NCBI GenBank assembly: GCA_903873655.1
Contig: CAIQPH010000265.1
Location: forward strand, 1 to 33,067
DNA length: 33,067 bases
Reading direction: 5' to 3'
From: an uncultured Holophagaceae bacterium
GTDB taxonomy: Bacteria; Acidobacteriota; Holophagae; Holophagales; Holophagaceae
Shown here: positions 7,680 to 31,027 of the stretch, in pieces
Layout of the letters: each line of letters starts with the position of its first letter
Position numbering within the stretch: the stretch's first letter is position 1
Notes under the pieces: model-generated
Databases searched by the model: none
The model's input: the letters and a program-made list of their open reading frames with translations, nothing else
Told to the model about the DNA's origin: nothing
Made by a program: the position numbers and the translations under genes

Positions 7680-7712
7680 ATTTCACCTTCCTTGGATTGA
7701 TTGACGATTGAC

Positions 7713-7836
7713 GCCTAACGGATGAAGCTAACCGGCCCCGCCTGCACCGAGGTGCTGAGCGGAGCCGAGATAGCATGAAGTTGAGAGAGAGCGAAAGGCA
7801 ATGCAGGCGGGGTCCGACTTGAGCGGAGGGTTAGGC
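7713..7836 (-). repeat. attC site 1 (distal)
   Basis: A 124-bp integron recombination site with outer boxes GCCTAAC and GTTAGGC and inner arms GCTAACCGG and CCGACTTGAGC. It follows the PAS-protein stop codon by 5 bp. The inner arms carry one mismatched pair (C opposite C-type arm) compared with the fully complementary sites 2-6. It is the last attC of the array. Confidence 0.93.
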
Positions 7837-7841
7837 GGCCG

Positions 7842-8471
7842 TCAGTCACGCGACCGCTTGATGGCCTCAATCTCGGAACGCAAATTTAGCGCGCACTCAG
7901 GGCAAATGCCGTGGCTGAACACAGCCTCTGAGCGGCGTGTGATGTAGCCTTCCATCTGTTCCCAGTTCCCCTGGTCGTCTCGGATCTTCTTGCAGGTAGC
8001 ACAAATTGGCAACAGTCCATCCAACACCCTGATGTGGGACTGCGCCTCCTGTAGTTCTAGGTGAAGACGTTCTTTCTCACGCTCTACCTGCTTGCGTTCC
8101 GAAATGTCGCGGTGCTGCCAGATTCGTCCGTAGTTCTGGCCATCCACATCGATGGGGGCGTAATCCACAAGTATCTCCCTCCCATTTTTCAATCGGGTCT
8201 CAACCCCTAGGATTGGCCCACCGCGTAAGACAATTTCCTGAATGAGTCGGAGCGTCCCCGGTGGATCTTCGTAGGCTGGCAGAATTTTGGTCAAAGTGGC
8301 CTCGGCCGTGAGTCCGGTGATCTCTTCGGCAGACACCTCCAGGCCCAACTGATTGCAAAAGCGCTCGTTCACGAATGCAATATGTTCATCTGCCCCCACC
8401 ACAAGAATCCCATAGTTCAGGTGGGACAGTATGGTGTGGTAGAGGCGGACGACAGCATGGACGTTTTGCAT
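7842..8471 (-). CDS. Cassette 1: PAS-domain protein with C-terminal Cys/His cluster
   Basis: A 209-residue soluble protein. A PAS domain occupies about residues 10-122 (GILVVGADEHIAFVNERFC, ending RIWQHRDISERK), then a charged coiled coil at about 123-148. The C-terminal module has Cys157-x2-Cys160 and His187-Gly-Ile-Cys190-Pro-Glu-Cys193, a likely metal-binding cluster seen at the end of many bacterial sensor proteins. There is no kinase, cyclase or DNA-binding domain, so it must signal through a partner or by itself through the Cys module. A GGTGAG ribosome site precedes the start. The stop lies 5 bp before attC site 1. The same Cys/His module with identical spacing ends the membrane protein at 29750-30328. 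Confidence 0.85.
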   Translation of the reverse strand: MQNVHAVVRLYHTILSHLNYGILVVGADEHIAFVNERFCNQLGLEVSAEEITGLTAEATLTKILPAYEDPPGTLRLIQEIVLRGGPILGVETRLKNGREILVDYAPIDVDGQNYGRIWQHRDISERKQVEREKERLHLELQEAQSHIRVLDGLLPICATCKKIRDDQGNWEQMEGYITRRSEAVFSHGICPECALNLRSEIEAIKRSRD

Positions 8472-8599
8472 ATCTCACCATCATAGACGCTGTGTCTGCG
8501 ACAATCTTGCTAAATACGAGCTATCAATTCTAATCAATAGTAGAAATGTAGAAATGACCACGGCTAAAAAATTTGGGCAATCTTGGACAGCCCCAAGGC

Positions 8600-8723
8600 G
8601 CCTAACGGAAGAAGCTAAGCGGCCGCGCCTGCCCCTTGGCGATGAGCGGAGCCGGGATAGCAAATTGCTGAAAGAGAGCGGAAGGCAATGCAGGCGGGGT
8701 CCGACTTGAGCGGAGGGTTAGGC
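8600..8723 (-). repeat. attC site 2
   Basis: A 124-bp attC with GCCTAAC/GTTAGGC boxes. The inner arms GCTAAGCGG and CCGACTTGAGC pair perfectly except for two unpaired bases on the right arm. It closes cassette 2 and lies 155 bp beyond the stop of its gene, the longest such gap in the array. Confidence 0.93.
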
Positions 8724-8878
8724 ACCACCCGACAATACTCCGCCATCGTCTTATTTAAGTAGGACATCGCATTCCTTGATACGCCTCGTCAACCTTAACC
8801 CTAACAGCCCGTGGTGCCAGTGGCCGTTAGCGGGTATGAGCTCTGCCCGAGTGCTGAACAAACGCCTGGCATGCCAGC

Positions 8879-9697
8879 TCAGCGGCTGAAGCGCTGCTGC
8901 AGTTCAGCGTACGGGATGGCGCCTTGGGCGAAACCGAAAGTGCCGTGATCTGCCATCTCGCGAGCGGCCTGGTCGACTAGGGTAAGGACAGCGCGAGTTA
9001 GGGTGCCGCCAACGCTGATCCGGGCGACGCCGAGCGCGCGCAGGGTGGCAGCGTCCAGCACCGGCTCGACCAGCCCGGACACGACGTTCACCGGCGCACC
9101 GATCGCGGCGGTAAGCCTGCCAATCTCTTCGGCAGCTGTGACACCGGGAACGAAGATACAGTCGGCTCCGGCTGCCAGGTAGCGCTCGGCCCGGTGCACC
9201 GTCTCAGCGAAGGCGTTCGGGTGCCTGATCATGTAGGGGTCGGTGCGCGCGTTCAGCACGAACGAACCGGCTGGTGCGGCAGACCGCGCCGCCTCCAGAC
9301 GCTCGCAGGCAGCCTCGACTGGGAGCAGTTCCCCAGGCTGAGTCACGTCCTCCAGATTGCCTCCGACCACCCCTAGCTCCACGGCAGCGGCGACCGTTGC
9401 TGCAACATGCTTCGCGGTAGCCCCGTAACCGGACTCCAGGTCGGCGCTCACCGGGCAGGCGACAGCCGACACGATCCGCGCGATGCAATCGAGCATCTCA
9501 GGCCACTCCATGGTGCCATCGGCGGCACCGCGGCTGAAGGCAATCCCGGCGCTTGTGGTGGCGATCGCGGCGAACCCAGCCTGTTCGAGGATCCGTGCCG
9601 AGCCACCATCCCAGGCATTCGGCAGAATGAACCCGGCGCCAGGTCGGTGCATCGCCAGGAACGCCGCCGCGCGGCTCGGGGTCGCGGATCCAGTCAT
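8879..9697 (-). CDS. Cassette 2: isocitrate lyase/PEP mutase-family protein
   Basis: A 272-residue protein of the ICL/PEP mutase superfamily, which cleaves or forms C-C or C-P bonds next to a carboxylate using Mg2+ in a TIM barrel. Visible hallmarks are FILPNAWDGGSARILEQAGF near the N-terminus, TTSAGIAFSRG, the metal-binding segment PVSADLESGYG, NLED, and NARTDPYM in the middle. The typical PEP mutase or isocitrate lyase active-site loop (KKCGH-like) is not obvious, so it belongs to the broad group of uncharacterised members often annotated as phosphonomutases. The gene is visibly GC-richer than the other cassettes and has only a weak ribosome site. About 185 bp of leader separates it from attC site 3. 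Confidence 0.82.
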   Translation of the reverse strand: MTGSATPSRAAAFLAMHRPGAGFILPNAWDGGSARILEQAGFAAIATTSAGIAFSRGAADGTMEWPEMLDCIARIVSAVACPVSADLESGYGATAKHVAATVAAAVELGVVGGNLEDVTQPGELLPVEAACERLEAARSAAPAGSFVLNARTDPYMIRHPNAFAETVHRAERYLAAGADCIFVPGVTAAEEIGRLTAAIGAPVNVVSGLVEPVLDAATLRALGVARISVGGTLTRAVLTLVDQAAREMADHGTFGFAQGAIPYAELQQRFSR

Positions 9698-9882
9698 GCG
9701 CCTGATTCTACGGCAACGCCCTCGGTCACGCCATCAAGCACCGGGTCAGTGCGACAGCAATCGTCGGCCTTCAGTTGCGCCTTACTGCCGTTAGACGCAA
9801 GAAATGAAATCGCCAAATTTGCATGGTCCTCGTAGTCTAAAGCCGTAGCCGATACCTACCTCGTCAAGGCCGCTCGCGTGGT

Positions 9883-10006
9883 GCCTAACGAATGAAGCTA
9901 AGCGGCCACGCCTGCGCCGAGGCGATGAGTGGAGCCGGGATAGCAAAATGCTGAGAGAGAGCGGAAGGCAATGCAGGCGGGGTCCGACTTGAGCGAGAGG
10001 TTAGGC
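9883..10006 (-). repeat. attC site 3
   Basis: A 124-bp attC with GCCTAAC and GTTAGGC boxes. The inner arms GCTAAGCGG/CCGACTTGAGC are fully complementary apart from the two unpaired bases. It lies 31 bp after the stop of the VOC gene. Confidence 0.93.
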
Positions 10007-10037
10007 CGCAGCTCGAAACCTTAAATGTTGAACCTGC

Positions 10038-10424
10038 TTATTGGCCTTGGGGCGGTTGCCATAGCTCGATTTTGTTTCCCTCCGGATCAATGACCCAGCC
10101 GAACACTCCATACTCGGATTCCTCAATCTTCTCGAGCACATTGCAGCCTTCTTCCTTTAGGGCTTTGACCAGAGCTTGGAGGTCTTCCACTCGGTAGTTG
10201 ACCATGAAGGGAGCAGAACTCGGAGCAAAGTGATCGCTTTCTTGCGGATTGATGCACCAGGCCGTTGTGCCCCTAACCGGCTTGCCCTCAGGGTCGGACC
10301 AATCGAAAGCAGCCCCGCCCCAAACTTGAACATCGATTCCCAAGTGGAGCTTGTACCAAGCCCGGAGTGATGGAGCATCTTTGGCCTTGAAGAAGATGCC
10401 ACCGATACCAGTGACTCGTTTCAT
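10038..10424 (-). CDS. Cassette 3: VOC (glyoxalase/bleomycin resistance) family protein
   Basis: A 128-residue single-unit VOC protein with two beta-alpha-beta-beta-beta halves. The N-terminal half begins GIGGIFFKAKD with the helix PSLRAWYKLHLGI. The C-terminal half ends GVFGWVIDPEGNKIELWQPP, in which Glu of KIELW is the usual metal ligand. Members include glyoxalases, dioxygenases and antibiotic-binding proteins, and the substrate cannot be told from sequence. An ideal GGAGGT ribosome site precedes the ATG, and only 44 bp separate the start from attC site 4. VOC proteins are recurrent integron cassette cargo. Confidence 0.88.
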   Translation of the reverse strand: MKRVTGIGGIFFKAKDAPSLRAWYKLHLGIDVQVWGGAAFDWSDPEGKPVRGTTAWCINPQESDHFAPSSAPFMVNYRVEDLQALVKALKEEGCNVLEKIEESEYGVFGWVIDPEGNKIELWQPPQGQ

Positions 10425-10468
10425 GTAACCTCCGATGCGTGATTATGGAGAGGAATGTTTATTCTGCG

Positions 10469-10592
10469 GCCTAACGAACAGGGCTAACCGGCACCGCCTG
10501 CACCGAGGCGCTGAGCGAAGCCGAGGAAGCAGGGAGACGAGAAAGAGCGGAAGGCAATGCAGGCGGGGTCCGAGTTGAGCTAAGGGTTAGAC
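10469..10592 (-). repeat. attC site 4
   Basis: A 124-bp attC with outer boxes GCCTAAC and GTTAGAC. The inner arms GCTAACCGG and CCGAGTTGAGC pair perfectly apart from two unpaired bases, the alternative compensatory combination to sites 2 and 3. It lies 64 bp after the stop of the membrane-protein gene. Confidence 0.93.
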
Positions 10593-10656
10593 CGCACTGT
10601 TGACCATAAATCGTGCCTTGCAATGAGTGGAGTATGAAGCCGTTTTCTCGGATAAC

Positions 10657-11034
10657 TCAAAAAAGAAATCCAGTGATTATGACAGTGCCTCGCAGCCATA
10701 CCCACAATAAGCAGAGTAGCAGTGGCAATTGGAGTAGATGGACCATCATTCTCCCGCGGAAGGCAACGAACGATATTGCTATGAGCCCGAGTGGGATGAC
10801 CATGAGAATGGTGAATGGACGAGCCCAAATGTCGTTTGCGTGATGCGTGAGGTAGACCATCCATGCACCTAGGTAAAACAAGGCGATCACAATTCCGTAT
10901 GCGGAGGCCAATACACGGCGGGCGAAGGATTGCGTTGTGGCGCTGGATCGGAAATAGGCCACACTGATCAGTGCCGCGCCGACTGCTGGAAGATGGAAGT
11001 CTCGTGACCACCTCCAAAACACATCCAAGTCCAT
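10657..11034 (-). CDS. Cassette 4: small integral membrane protein, unknown function
   Basis: A 125-residue protein of mostly hydrophobic character with about four predicted transmembrane helices (roughly residues 15-30, 42-62, 72-90 and 98-122). A short conserved-looking loop HHANDIWARP lies between helices 2 and 3. I do not recognise the family. The ATG is preceded by AGGAG and sits 17 bp from attC site 5. The gene is clearly lower in GC than the flanking chromosome. An overlapping frame at 10580-11017 has no hydrophobic pattern and is a shadow. Confidence 0.7.
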   Translation of the reverse strand: MDLDVFWRWSRDFHLPAVGAALISVAYFRSSATTQSFARRVLASAYGIVIALFYLGAWMVYLTHHANDIWARPFTILMVIPLGLIAISFVAFRGRMMVHLLQLPLLLCLLWVWLRGTVIITGFLF

Positions 11035-11051
11035 CGCGGGCTCCTGGTGCG

Positions 11052-11175
11052 GCCTAACGACTAAGCTAACCGGGCCCCGCCTGCACCGAAGCGCTGAGCG
11101 AAGCCGAGAAAGCGGAATGAAGAGAAAGAGCGGAAGACAATGCAGGCGGGGTCCGAGTTGAGCGGAGGGTTAGGC
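11052..11175 (-). repeat. attC site 5
   Basis: A 124-bp attC with GCCTAAC and GTTAGGC boxes. The inner arms GCTAACCGG/CCGAGTTGAGC are fully complementary apart from the two unpaired bases. It follows the stop of the cassette 5 gene by 20 bp. Confidence 0.93.
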
Positions 11176-11195
11176 CACGAACCGGGCAGAATGGG

Positions 11196-11639
11196 TTAGC
11201 AACCATCATTGCCCACTACCTTGAAGGTGGTTGTAGATTTTCCGAGTGAAAGCACCAGATGGCCTTCATATATTGTGGCCTCAGTCCCGATAGCCTTGAT
11301 TCGGTATTTCAAAGTAGCCTTCAGTTCGCCATCAGAGCAAACCTGTTCGAACGAATCTCCGATCTTTGCTTTCTGTTTTGCGGTGGTTGAAGAGGTTTCA
11401 CGGAGAATCTTTAGGTGATGTAGCTTTCCATTGACTCGTATCAACCAGCCGCCGCTCTCTTTATCAACGGCCATAGCCTGGGGAGATGCAGAGCCTTGAG
11501 TTGGTGGAATTGTGTAGAAGCAAAGTTCAGTGAATTCTTCTGCTTCTCCCGGCCTCAAGGGATCGATCGTGATTCGGACTTGAGCATAGGAAGTGGTGAT
11601 CGAAAATATTATCGGGGCGATGAATGGCAGTCCGCGCAT
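11196..11639 (-). CDS. Cassette 5: secreted protein of unknown function
   Basis: A 147-residue protein with a signal peptide (MRGLPFIAPIIFSITTSYAQ). The mature part is a probable beta-rich domain with three cysteines (FTELCFYTIP, EQVCSDGEL and the C-terminal Cys). I recognise no family. Its ATG lies only 6 bp from attC site 6, so the whole leader is recombination-site sequence and the only ribosome-site-like bases are the AGG inside the GTTAGGC box. It is low-GC compared with the chromosome. It presumably acts in the periplasm or outside the cell. Confidence 0.68.
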   Translation of the reverse strand: MRGLPFIAPIIFSITTSYAQVRITIDPLRPGEAEEFTELCFYTIPPTQGSASPQAMAVDKESGGWLIRVNGKLHHLKILRETSSTTAKQKAKIGDSFEQVCSDGELKATLKYRIKAIGTEATIYEGHLVLSLGKSTTTFKVVGNDGC

Positions 11640-11645
11640 AGAGTG

Positions 11646-11769
11646 GCCTAACGGAGGAAGCTAACCGGACCCGCCTGCGCCGAGGCGCTGAACGGAGCCG
11701 TGGAAGCAGGGAGATGAAAGAGAGCGGAAGGCAATGCAGGCGGGGTCCGAGTTGAGCTGAGGGTTAGGC
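11646..11769 (-). repeat. attC site 6
   Basis: A 124-bp attC with GCCTAAC and GTTAGGC boxes. The inner arms GCTAACCGG/CCGAGTTGAGC are fully complementary apart from the two unpaired bases. It closes cassette 6, 24 bp after the stop of the SnoaL-like gene. Confidence 0.93.
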
Positions 11770-11793
11770 CTGAATAGACGGCCGTTGGTCTGT

Positions 11794-12318
11794 TTACTTT
11801 TTGATTTCGGAAGGCCGAGGAGAACCAGGCGGCAAAACACCGAGCTGTCGGTACATTCCCAATTCATCCCAGTCCACCCAGACCTCGACCATTTTGCCGC
11901 TCTCGAACCGGTATATCACTGTCTCAGAGAATCGAACAGCACGGCCAGTTGGAGGAATATTCTCAATCACTCCCTTTTGGGTGCCCGTCCAGGTTGTTCG
12001 AAGGACCACTCTGTCGCCTTCCGCAATCACATCATCGATGACAACGTGTGTATCCGGAAAAGCGGAAAGCCACCCTTTCATTGCGGCTGCCTCTATCTGG
12101 GGACTCCAGGGAAATGTGTTTCCACCCATCCACCACTTTCCCTTTTCAGCAATGAAGTCGGTCAGGCGAGAAGTGTCACCTTTGTTCCACGCCTCGAGAC
12201 CCATCACGGCGACCTTCTTGTTTTCTGCAAGGTCGTGTTGTTTCGACTGTGAATGGAGAGGTGGGGTGGAAACGATAACGCCGACAAGAATTCCCGGAAC
12301 GAGGATGCGAAAATTCAT
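11794..12318 (-). CDS. Cassette 6: secreted SnoaL-like/NTF2-fold protein
   Basis: A 174-residue protein with a signal peptide (MNFRILVPGILVGVIVSTPPLHS) and one SnoaL-like domain. The alpha+beta cone pattern is visible: helix with EAWNKGDTSRLTDFIAE, then WSPQIEAAAMKGWLSAFPD, then strands VVIDDVIAEGDRVVLRTTWTG, AVRFSETVIYRFESGKMVE and VWVDWDELGMYRQLG. Most relatives are polyketide cyclases, ketosteroid-isomerase-like enzymes or non-catalytic binders; catalysis cannot be assumed. Export is unusual for the family, though common in environmental genomes. A GAGGGG ribosome site precedes the ATG. Confidence 0.82.
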   Translation of the reverse strand: MNFRILVPGILVGVIVSTPPLHSQSKQHDLAENKKVAVMGLEAWNKGDTSRLTDFIAEKGKWWMGGNTFPWSPQIEAAAMKGWLSAFPDTHVVIDDVIAEGDRVVLRTTWTGTQKGVIENIPPTGRAVRFSETVIYRFESGKMVEVWVDWDELGMYRQLGVLPPGSPRPSEIKK

Positions 12319-12381
12319 GGTTGCCCCTCTTGGATGGCGCCGATAAATGCGTGTTGGTTGGAACGGTGAATATTGAAATGG

Positions 12382-12506
12382 GCCTAACGAAGGAAGCTAA
12401 CCGGGCCCCGCCTGCACCGAGACGATGAGCGGAGCCGAGGTAGCAAAATGATGAGAGAGAGCGAAAGGCAATGCAGGCGAGGTCCGACTTGAGCGGAGGG
12501 TTAGAC
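12382..12506 (-). repeat. attC site 7
   Basis: A 125-bp attC with GCCTAAC and GTTAGAC boxes. Inner arms GCTAACCGG and CCGACTTGAGC carry one mismatch, as in sites 1 and 8. It closes the toxin-antitoxin cassette, 37 bp after the antitoxin stop. Confidence 0.93.
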
Positions 12507-12543
12507 CGCGTATCGACCCGATTCGAATTTGGAATCTTGGATT

Positions 12544-12828
12544 TCAATGCGCAGGAATAGCGTGAAGTTTGACACCCAATGCCGCTACAAGTTTGAGAAC
12601 AGTGTCGTACCGAGGTTTGGCACCTGGGCTAAGGGCTTTATAAAGGCTCTCACGCCCAAGTCCAGAATCTTTGGCAAGTTGAGTCATGCCTCGAGCCCGG
12701 GCGATATTTCGAACAGCCATGAGGAATATGTCAGGATCAGGATCTTCGAGGGCGACGGAGAGGTACTCAGAAATGACCTCTTCATTGTCGAGGTAGTCGG
12801 CGACATCAAAGGGTGCAAGCTTAGCCAT
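12544..12828 (-). CDS. higA: Cassette 7: HigA-like antitoxin (HTH)
   Basis: A 94-residue putative addiction-module antidote protein. It has an N-terminal segment (FDVADYLDNEEVISEYLSVA) typical of this family and a helix-turn-helix at about residues 48-84 (ARARGMTQLAKDSGL, ESLYKALSPGAKPRYDTVLK). It follows the toxin gene by 3 bp and has its own strong AAGGAG ribosome site. Toxin-first order is the HigBA arrangement. It should neutralise the toxin and repress the shared promoter, for which an inverted repeat is visible upstream of the toxin. Toxin-antitoxin cassettes are thought to stabilise integron arrays against cassette loss. Confidence 0.88.
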   Translation of the reverse strand: MAKLAPFDVADYLDNEEVISEYLSVALEDPDPDIFLMAVRNIARARGMTQLAKDSGLGRESLYKALSPGAKPRYDTVLKLVAALGVKLHAIPAH

Positions 12829-12831
12829 GGG

Positions 12832-13131
12832 TTACTCCTTGGGAATGGACTTGAGCAGGGTTTTGGCGTGCTGGATATCTCGCGCCTGAGTGGATTTGTC
12901 ACCACCGACAAGGAGCAAGTAGACAATCTCAGCTCGCCGCGTGTAATAGATCCTGTAGCCTGGACCAAAGTCGATGCGCATTTCCGAGACACCGCCGCTC
13001 AAGGCCTTGGAGTCACCAAAATTGCCTTTGGTTGCCCGGTCAAGGCGATTGAAGATGACGGCTTTGGCCCGGGAATCCTTCAACCCTCCAAGCCAGGCGC
13101 GGAATTCGTCGGTTTGGAGGAGAGTGTTCAT
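12832..13131 (-). CDS. higB: Cassette 7: HigB/RelE-superfamily toxin
   Basis: A 99-residue addiction-module killer protein. Family hallmarks are FRAWLGGLKDSRAKAVIFNR near the N-terminus, GVSEMRIDFGPGYRIYYTRR in the middle and LLLVGGDKSTQ near the end. These toxins are ribosome-associated mRNA endonucleases, and the Arg/Tyr-rich GPGYRIYY segment lies where their active site is expected. I chose ATG 13131, with TTAAGG upstream, because family members start at this point. An in-frame ATG at 13173 lies within the promoter and has no ribosome site. It is coupled to the antitoxin gene 3 bp downstream. Confidence 0.87.
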   Translation of the reverse strand: MNTLLQTDEFRAWLGGLKDSRAKAVIFNRLDRATKGNFGDSKALSGGVSEMRIDFGPGYRIYYTRRAEIVYLLLVGGDKSTQARDIQHAKTLLKSIPKE

Positions 13132-13138
13132 GGCCTTA

Positions 13139-13166
13139 AGTGTATCCCTACGGATACGCTCGTCAA
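13139..13166 (-). promoter_or_regulatory. Candidate higBA promoter with embedded operator
   Basis: On the minus strand TTGACG (13166-13161) and TACACT (13144-13139) are separated by 16 bp, a plausible sigma70-type promoter. An inverted repeat GTATCC-N4-GGATAC (13142-13157) fills the spacer and touches the -10, the expected place for a HigA-type autorepressor. The predicted start would fall right at the toxin ATG, suggesting a leaderless or very short-leader message. This is the only cassette promoter with such a clear signature. Confidence 0.5.
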
Positions 13167-13183
13167 GTGGCATTCGTTCAGCG

Positions 13184-13307
13184 GGCTAACGAACAGGGCT
13201 AACCGGCCGCGCCTGCACCGAGGCGATGAGCGAAGCCGAGGAAGCAGGGAGATGAGAGAGAGCGGAAGGCAATGCAGGCGGGGTCCGACTTGAGCGAGAG
13301 GTTAGGC
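13184..13307 (-). repeat. attC site 8 (integrase-proximal)
   Basis: A 124-bp attC with a GTTAGGC box at one end and the degenerate GGCTAAC at the other. Inner arms GCTAACCGG and CCGACTTGAGC carry one mismatch. It lies 9 bp after the stop of the cassette 8 gene and is the attC nearest the intI relic. Confidence 0.92.
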
Positions 13308-13316
13308 TGCCCATTG

Positions 13317-29749: not shown

Positions 29750-30328
29750 CTAGGGTTGGTTCGTAACCGCCTCAGGCGGCTTTTGCTTGAACTCCACCTG
29801 GGCTTTCTCACGACATTCGGGGCAGATGCCATGGCTGATCTTGGCGCCCTTCTGTAGGGCGAGATAATCCTCGATCTGGTTCCAGTAGCCCTTGTCGTCC
29901 CGGACTCGCTTGCACCAGGCGCAGATGGGGAAGAGATCTTCCAGAGTCTTGACCTCGTTTAGGGCCCGTTTGAGCGACTCGGCGATGGCCTGCTGTTCGA
30001 CCAGCGCCGAATGAAAGCGATCCACGAGCCAGGCCATAAAGCCGAATGTCGTGACATCGTTACCCATGGTCCAGAAGCGATACCCCACCTGATCGTAGAC
30101 GGCAGCGGTGGCATAGTTCCCGATACCCCAGCAAACGGCCCCGAGAAAGGCCGCGAGAAGCCCCCAGCGGATTCCTCCTGCCCAGGCGGCCAACGCCACC
30201 GGGAAGAGGTAGAGGTTCCCGAAGCTCAGCTGGTCCGGAGTCTTGACCTCGACCACGCAAATGGCACCCATGAAGGCCATACAGGCGATCAAGGTCTTGA
30301 ACTTGGGTAGATTGTAGAAGGCATGCAT
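29750..30328 (-). CDS. Membrane protein with C-terminal Cys/His cluster
   Basis: A protein of 192 residues from ATG 30328; the frame is open to 30598, but that part is antisense to the tpx start and lacks hydrophobic or conserved features. Three or four transmembrane helices occupy about residues 7-100, including YLFPVALAAWAGGIRWG, which resembles MASE-type sensor membrane domains. A short coiled coil then leads to Cys136-x2-Cys139 and His166-Gly-Ile-Cys169-Pro-Glu-Cys172. This C-terminal module matches that of the first integron cassette protein in spacing. It is probably a sensor or signalling adaptor without an output domain of its own. Confidence 0.75.
   Translation of the reverse strand: MHAFYNLPKFKTLIACMAFMGAICVVEVKTPDQLSFGNLYLFPVALAAWAGGIRWGLLAAFLGAVCWGIGNYATAAVYDQVGYRFWTMGNDVTTFGFMAWLVDRFHSALVEQQAIAESLKRALNEVKTLEDLFPICAWCKRVRDDKGYWNQIEDYLALQKGAKISHGICPECREKAQVEFKQKPPEAVTNQP

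Positions 30329-30529: not shown

Positions 30530-31027
<498 letters not shown>

What the first reader, a model, noticed from the sequence alone, without database searches (positions are those of the whole stretch)
7842..8471. Same Cys/His module in cassette 1 protein and a chromosomal membrane protein
Cys-x2-Cys...His-Gly-Ile-Cys-Pro-Glu-Cys ends both this PAS protein and the product of 29750-30328. The distance from first to last Cys is 36 residues in both, and about 22 of 38 positions are identical. In both, the module follows a sensor region and coiled coil, with no known output domain. It may be the signalling output, perhaps a metal- or redox-binding unit.
Basis: seen in the sequence. 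Interest (0 to 1): 0.55.

Follow-up and report, generated by a model that had tools for sequence, protein, structure and literature searches.

The report
Unnamed zinc-type bacterial signalling output module
Two otherwise unrelated sensor proteins in this window end in the same small four-cysteine module, which turns out to be a widespread bacterial domain without a name in the libraries searched; it sits where signalling proteins normally carry their output part, and what it acts on is still unknown.

Summary
Both genes are on the minus strand; the modules share 21 of 37 residues from first to last Cys (two-protein BLAST E 4e-20). The module is not private to this genome: seven clear copies in the assembly, and matches in 74/199 sampled genomes of the window's phylum, 46/99 of Desulfospira's and 23/200 of a Halieaceae genome's. 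No Pfam, NCBIfam or PHROG match was convincing. In 171 of 172 distinct modules whose reading frame ends inside the locus it is the C-terminus; the exception runs on into GGDEF. Partners seen are sensors or a receiver: PAS, REC, Cache, GAF, MASE, 7TM, Reg_prop. A REC-module protein with nothing else exists. In the same genus the second window protein's membrane sensor is fused to this module (13 of 15), GGDEF (1) or a hybrid histidine kinase (1), so the module replaces known outputs. Four Cys and one His are near-invariant. AlphaFold gives a zinc-knuckle-like arrangement; its nearest solved structure, not significant, is PerR with its Zn(Cys)4 site. Best reading: an unnamed Zn(Cys)4 output domain acting through a protein partner. 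Metal, partner and effect are untested. The first protein is an attC-bounded integron cassette.

The parts
7842..8471 (-). PAS + helix + Cys4/His module protein (P0001, 209 aa), integron cassette gene
   Evidence: translation; PAS; attC sites
8106..8444 (-). PAS domain of P0001 (residues 10-122)
   Evidence: Pfam PF00989, 23.0 bits against cut-off 22.6; NCBIfam TIGR00229, 37.1 bits against 22.9, residues 10-132
8034..8108 (-). predicted long helix (probable coiled-coil linker), residues 122-146
   Evidence: AlphaFold model of residues 121-209: helix 2-26, pLDDT 94 and 98 in its first two blocks, 73 in the third
7872..8015 (-). Cys4/His output module of P0001 (C157, C160, H187, C190, C193)
   Evidence: HMM match 4.4e-28, a seed of the profile; alignments A1, A3, A8
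29750..30328 (-). membrane sensor + helix + Cys4/His module protein (P0002, 192 aa; a longer in-frame GTG start at 30598 is open)
   Evidence: translation; ORF list
30128..30289 (-). membrane sensor region of P0002 (residues 14-67), weakly DUF4118-like
   Evidence: PF13493, 22.2 bits, below the cut-off of 28.4; homologues with other outputs
29792..29935 (-). Cys4/His output module of P0002
   Evidence: HMM match 1.4e-27, a seed of the profile; BLASTP to P0001 4e-20
7713..7836 (.). attC site directly after the stop codon of P0001
   Evidence: R''/R' boxes GCCTAAC...GTTAGGC, 124 bp; repeat family D1
8600..8723 (.). attC site on the other side of the P0001 cassette

Best explanation
The shared C-terminal stretch is an independent domain of about 45-50 residues, widespread in bacteria and unnamed in the libraries searched. 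It serves as the output part of one-component and response-regulator type signalling proteins. Shown here: it is C-terminal, follows sensors or a receiver domain, usually through a helix, and stands where GGDEF or histidine kinase stands behind the same sensor. Inferred: the four cysteines hold one zinc ion in a knuckle-hairpin-helix arrangement, with the near-invariant His and the conserved W/E/Y residues forming a docking surface. Signal changes the sensor dimer, the helix turns or opens, and the module exposes or hides that surface to a protein partner encoded elsewhere. Small size and a negatively charged core argue against an enzyme or a plain nucleic-acid binder.
For: C-terminal in 171 of 172 distinct modules whose ORF ends inside its locus. 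Pfam partners are sensors or receivers: in the 58-protein set all 25 families are listed and the only classical output is one GGDEF; in the 100-protein set no output family is among the 25 most frequent of 60. A histidine-kinase core query found nothing in 181 module ORFs at E<=1, a GGDEF query found only L033. Response_reg in 13 of 100; L071 is REC-module only. Same sensor as P0002: module in 13 of 15, GGDEF in L287, HisKA-HATPase-REC in L296. In 90 copies not found through a motif pattern: the four Cys 90, 90, 89, 90; His 90; Pro 90. All 19 weak-scoring members read keep both CxxC pairs although the spacing moves from 25 to 35. Same strand/helix order in two predictions. Core net charge median -2.
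Against: L033 carries the module before a GGDEF domain, so it is not always the last element. No metal was measured. No partner gene is shared: among 75 same-strand neighbours 7 have REC and 6 HATPase (5 of them also HisKA-type counts), other listed families match at most 2 (25 of 138 families shown). Two of 19 divergent members lack the His (L254, L255).
Confidence: 0.6

Rival explanations
1. Redox or metal sensor: the Cys4 site itself senses peroxide, thiol stress or zinc, and the module is an input that modulates the PAS, REC or membrane part.
For: Top solved structure in the module-only search is PerR-Zn, whose entry title speaks of a Zn(Cys)4 structural redox switch (2fe3_B). A FurA abstract seen in a search listing says lack of a structural zinc lets FurA, with two CXXC motifs, develop disulfide reductase activity (PMC8229018).
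Against: The module sits after the sensors and replaces GGDEF or kinase; without it the proteins listed have no recognised output. The PerR match is not significant (E 0.19).
Confidence: 0.17
2. Nucleic-acid binding zinc finger: the module binds DNA or RNA directly, making these one-component regulators.
For: Small Cys4 fingers often bind nucleic acid (general knowledge); conserved K13, K14, R16 next to the first knuckle.
Against: Core net charge median -2, range -6 to +1; these basic residues are lost in several divergent copies.
Confidence: 0.12
3. Purely structural cap: the module only stabilises the helix dimer, and output is by the sensor dimer itself.
For: Fur-family Zn(Cys)4 sites are commonly regarded as structural (recalled); the module follows a helix in the P0001 model and a heptad-like stretch in most aligned members by eye.
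Against: Many conserved polar residues (K, R, D, D, Q, E, H, S) beyond what a structural site needs, though some vary in divergent copies; in L071 it directly follows REC without a long coiled coil.
Confidence: 0.08

Closest known systems
HalOD2 and TackOD1 (archaeal response-regulator output domains, PMC5847659; passages read)
   Same: Cys-rich, predicted zinc-finger-like domains attached to receiver domains, function unknown; HalOD2 has two CXXC motifs at its C-terminus
   Different: [quoted passage not shown] here 29 residues lie between them in the typical form, with near-invariant H and W, in bacteria. TackOD1 has 11 conserved Cys. No sequence comparison was possible
Zn(Cys)4 site of the Fur/PerR/Zur dimerisation domain (PF01475)
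   Same: CxxC, strand, helix, strand, CxxC order; PerR 2fe3_B is the top Foldseek hit of the module-only model (E 0.19; VIA Z 2.1, rmsd 3.1 over 36 residues); hhalign probability 32%, score above 197 of 200 column-shuffled controls
   Different: Not significant; the local hhalign match covers 10 columns only; no DNA-binding domain; longer spacing in Fur; P0001 and P0002 have no FUR hit
Anti-sigma factors Fin (PF10955) and Gin (PF10764)
   Same: small Cys-rich proteins that act by binding a protein partner (recalled); weak Pfam matches in 8 and 6 of 87 modules, best 5.9e-4 and 0.024
   Different: Weak matches in a minority of members; no fusion to sensors is known to me
GGDEF and histidine-kinase output domains
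   Same: same slot behind sensor and helix; direct exchange behind the P0002-type sensor
   Different: No sequence or size relation; module is about 50 residues without a recognisable catalytic motif
S-helix coupled signalling proteins (PMC1592074; passages read)
   Same: helix between sensor and output
   Different: Whether the linker here is an S-helix was not tested

Membership tests
Fur/PerR/Zur family (PF01475) | winged-helix DNA-binding domain plus dimerisation domain, Pfam FUR match | tested here: not met
   P0001 and P0002 have no FUR hit at E<=10; FUR is not among the 25 of 56 families shown for 87 modules
Fur/PerR/Zur family (PF01475) | Zn(Cys)4 knuckle fold of the dimerisation domain | tested here: inconclusive
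   Foldseek E 0.19, VIA Z 2.1 with rmsd 3.1 over 36 residues; hhalign probability 32% over 10 columns
DksA/TraR zinc finger (PF01258) | Pfam match / profile similarity | tested here: not met
   hhalign probability 4.6%; no hit for P0001 or P0002 at E<=10
Output domain of two-component / one-component signalling proteins | attached to a receiver or sensor domain, in place of known outputs | tested here: met
Output domain of two-component / one-component signalling proteins | its activity changes with the input state | not testable with these tools
   needs biochemistry
Zinc-binding Cys4 domain | two CxxC pairs retained across members | tested here: met
   90, 90, 89 and 90 of 90 copies not found through a motif pattern; 19 of 19 divergent members read
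Zinc-binding Cys4 domain | binds zinc | not testable with these tools
   no metal measurement
HalOD2 | two CXXC motifs 20-25 residues apart after a HalX-like part | tested here: not met
   29 residues between the motifs in all 119 regex-found copies, a few of them repeats of one gene; 25-35 in 19 divergent ones, one at 25; the HalX-like part was not tested
Anti-sigma Fin/Gin | Pfam match to the family | tested here: inconclusive
   weak matches in 8 and 6 of 87 modules at E<=1, best 5.9e-4 and 0.024; none for P0001 or P0002

The most novel reading that the evidence does not exclude
The module is an unrecognised general bacterial output domain, comparable in use to GGDEF or histidine-kinase transmitters, that couples very diverse sensors to one common cellular target (for example a sigma factor or RNA polymerase, in the manner of small Cys-rich anti-sigma factors), and that is also passed on in integron cassettes.
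Probability: 0.15. Interest if true: 0.85.

Novelty: new variant of a known kind. Interest (0 to 1): 0.6.

Why it matters
Signalling proteins of the kinds found here (PAS, Cache, membrane or receiver domains with nothing recognisable behind) have no known output. This module supplies a candidate output for them in many genomes of the window's phylum, the Desulfospira phylum and others, with up to 19 copies per genome. Naming it and finding its target would turn these orphan sensors into testable pathways.

Tried and rejected
Known families: Pfam and NCBIfam on the two proteins at E<=10, and NCBIfam, Pfam and PHROGs on 87 modules, gave no convincing model for the module (for Pfam 25 of 56 and for PHROGs 25 of 32 families are shown). 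DUF3039 matches 80 of 87 members, best 0.0012, and in P0001 covers only 11 residues around the first CxxC. phrog_38508 matches 25 of 87, best 0.0017; phrog_1474 (unknown function) covers residues 13-48 of the P0001 module piece at 0.0044. None was followed further. PDB sequences: no hit for the module alone. The profile's best hits are glutamate dehydrogenases (E from 0.073), judged chance; a PerR came at 0.49. Viral structures: best E 0.22, nothing usable.

DksA/TraR: considered because it pairs a coiled coil with a Cys4 finger (recalled); hhalign 4.6%, rejected. Fur homology: suggestive only; the local hhalign match covers 10 columns at the second CxxC, the global mode misaligned the Cys pairs, and 3 of 200 shuffles scored as high locally and 6 of 200 globally.

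Genomic partner: nearest same-strand neighbours within 400 bases of module genes in the named loci (75 proteins) share no family beyond two-component ones such as REC, HATPase and HisKA among the 25 of 138 families shown; 49 opposite-strand neighbours were listed but not scanned, and no background control was run.

Output motifs by regular expression in 181 ORFs: no HisKA, EAL or chemoreceptor pattern, one GGDEF; loose patterns hit 15 (N-box), 1 (G1) and 1 (PP2C) and are not informative. That HisKA pattern would have missed the kinase of L296, so I repeated the test with sequence queries.

Literature: motif strings searched anywhere in 5.39 million open papers gave no relevant paper. Term searches showed no description of this module in their listings; only PMC5847659 and PMC1592074 were opened, and only in passages. 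Two reviews on response-regulator output domains (PMC1482966, PMC3086695; Galperin 2006 and 2010 by the reference list seen) are not held; CDD, InterPro and SMART are not on hand. So 'unnamed' means unnamed in what was searched.

Ascertainment: the 80 named loci were found by a pattern that itself contains the His and two of the Cys, and the viral loci by patterns of that kind, so they say nothing on the invariance of those residues. An earlier count of 96 still held some of these; removes them and leaves 90 of 175 rows, mostly best-scoring ones. Likewise 181 ORF strings became 178 after dropping three that run off their locus, and 172 distinct modules after merging copies of one gene. Weak own-genome hit G000:C232 (E 0.028) reads like an acetyl-CoA carboxylase beta zinc finger (recognised by eye) and is not counted.

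Full report
The thing itself. P0001 (7842-8471, minus strand) is a 209-residue protein: PAS domain, predicted helix, then the module. P0002 (29750-30328, minus strand) is a 192-residue membrane-type protein ending in the same module. From first to last Cys, 21 of 37 residues agree and BLASTP gives 4e-20.

It is a family. In the window's own assembly seven clear copies occur, plus one weak hit that is not counted. Judged by eye, and by Pfam for L004 (dCache_1, HAMP), they stand behind PAS-like, membrane and Cache-HAMP sensors. A profile of these seven (A1) matches at E<=0.001 in 74 of 199 sampled genomes of the window's phylum, 1 to 19 copies each; in 46 of 99 of the phylum of Desulfospira joergensenii; and in 23 of 200 of the phylum of a Halieaceae genome. 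Each tally includes its centre genome, which was known to have the module. The window's genus appears to be Geothrix: a same-genus genome (G150) shares exact match coordinates with the genome of Geothrix sp. SG200 (G207).

Conservation. In 90 aligned copies that were not found through a motif pattern, the four Cys are kept in 90, 90, 89 and 90, His and Pro in 90, Trp in 88, Tyr in 90. Nineteen weak-scoring members were read. All 19 keep the two CxxC pairs while the spacing moves between 25 and 35 residues (29 is typical); 17 of 19 keep the His, L254 and L255 do not; the basic and acidic residues of the typical form are lost in several.

Position and partners. Of 181 distinct module ORF strings three run off the end of their locus. 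The remaining 178 hold 172 distinct modules; in 171 of them the frame ends within 63 residues after the profile match, and one, L033, continues into a GGDEF domain. A histidine-kinase core and a GGDEF domain from the same genus, used as queries, found no kinase in the 181 at E<=1 and only L033 for GGDEF; some of these ORFs are cut at their N-terminal side by the locus ends. Pfam partners in 100 full proteins: PAS families, Response_reg (13), Reg_prop and Y_Y_Y, dCache, HAMP, HisKA_7TM (a membrane sensor region), GAF, MASE3, TPR; only the 25 commonest of 60 families are shown. For 58 of them the complete list of 25 families contains one classical output domain, the GGDEF of L033. For 26 long ones 25 of 43 families are shown, none of them an output. 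The other 16 were seen only in the joint scan. L071 is a receiver domain followed at once by the module.

Exchange with known outputs. The membrane part of P0002 was searched in 41 genomes of its genus, its own included. Fifteen matches were found in 11 genomes, P0002 itself among them: 13 end in the module, one (L287) in GGDEF, one (L296, the weakest match, E 3.2e-4) in HisKA-HATPase-REC after further sequence. The module therefore stands where a known output can stand.

Structure. AlphaFold of residues 121-209 gives a long helix and then strand, CxxC turn, strand, strand, short helix, strand, CxxC at the start of a helix (pLDDT 82.8, pTM 0.51). The module alone gives the same order (pLDDT 78.0, pTM 0.60). 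Foldseek finds nothing significant. For the module alone the best hit is B. subtilis PerR-Zn (E 0.19, probability 0.51); VIA-align gives Z 2.1, rmsd 3.1 over 36 residues, model 2-53 on PerR 88-145. Nmd3 chains rank slightly higher there (best Z 3.0, rmsd 6.4 over 60). For the longer model a Fur chain, a cyanobacterial zinc-quota sensor (Zur by recall) and another PerR also appear among the weak hits, beside Nmd3 and a PHD finger. Profile comparison with 14 Fur-family zinc segments gives 32% over 10 columns, with a score that 3 of 200 column shuffles reached; DksA gives 4.6%. A shared Fur-type zinc knuckle is a lead, not a finding.

Mechanism. Inferred: sensor state is carried through the helix to a small zinc-held domain whose conserved face docks on a partner. 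No partner is encoded nearby as a rule: of 75 same-strand neighbours 7 carry REC, 6 HATPase and 5 HisKA, and the other families listed match at most two. Weak similarity to the anti-sigma factors Fin and Gin (8 and 6 of 87 members, best 5.9e-4 and 0.024) is the only hint to a target class, and it may be chance.

Mobility. P0001 lies between attC sites 7713-7836 and 8600-8723. Seven sites with matching end boxes were found and the repeat family has eight copies of 134 bases. Full-length relatives (76-77% identity) occur in only 2 of 24 other same-genus genomes examined. An attC-like piece (91 bases, 82%) lies near one of them (L009/L274) and none was detected near the other (L273). So at least here the output module sits in a gene cassette.

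Novelty. Zinc-finger-like output domains of response regulators are a known kind in archaea (HalOD2, TackOD1; PMC5847659, passages). This bacterial module differs in spacing, conserved residues and range, and no library or open paper searched here describes it (and the term searches). The subscription literature, CDD, InterPro and SMART were not searchable.

Noticed in passing
window 7706-13310: Integron cassette array: eight copies of an attC-type repeat (seven with matching end boxes) and minus-strand genes; no integrase gene was noticed in the window's ORF list, but none was searched for. Pfam: PEP_mutase (8879-9697), Glyoxalase_6 (10038-10424), SnoaL (11794-12318); three of eight cassette proteins scanned have no Pfam match at 0.001.
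   Followed up: partly
window 12544-13173: Toxin-antitoxin-like pair in one cassette: probable addiction module antidote (PF21716, 1.9e-37) next to a Gp49/DUF891-like protein just below its cut-off.
   Followed up: no
L033:4794-5882: The only module protein seen in which the module is followed by another output: module, then a repeated helix segment, then GGDEF.
   Followed up: partly
L250-L254, L259, L262: A divergent sub-family of about 200-250 residue proteins with a longer module (35 residues between the CxxC pairs) and, where read, a PAS-like N-terminus by eye; most come from genomes of the phylum reached through a Halieaceae locus, L259 from one reached through a Verrucomicrobia locus.
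   Followed up: no
genomes G000, G027, G040, G053, G013: None of the 5 sampled genomes of the window's class has a DksA/TraR zinc-finger match at E<=1e-5, while 49 of all 60 sampled genomes of the phylum do.
   Followed up: no
L179-L181: Three IMG/VR contigs labelled viral carry module proteins; they may be host sequence.
   Followed up: no
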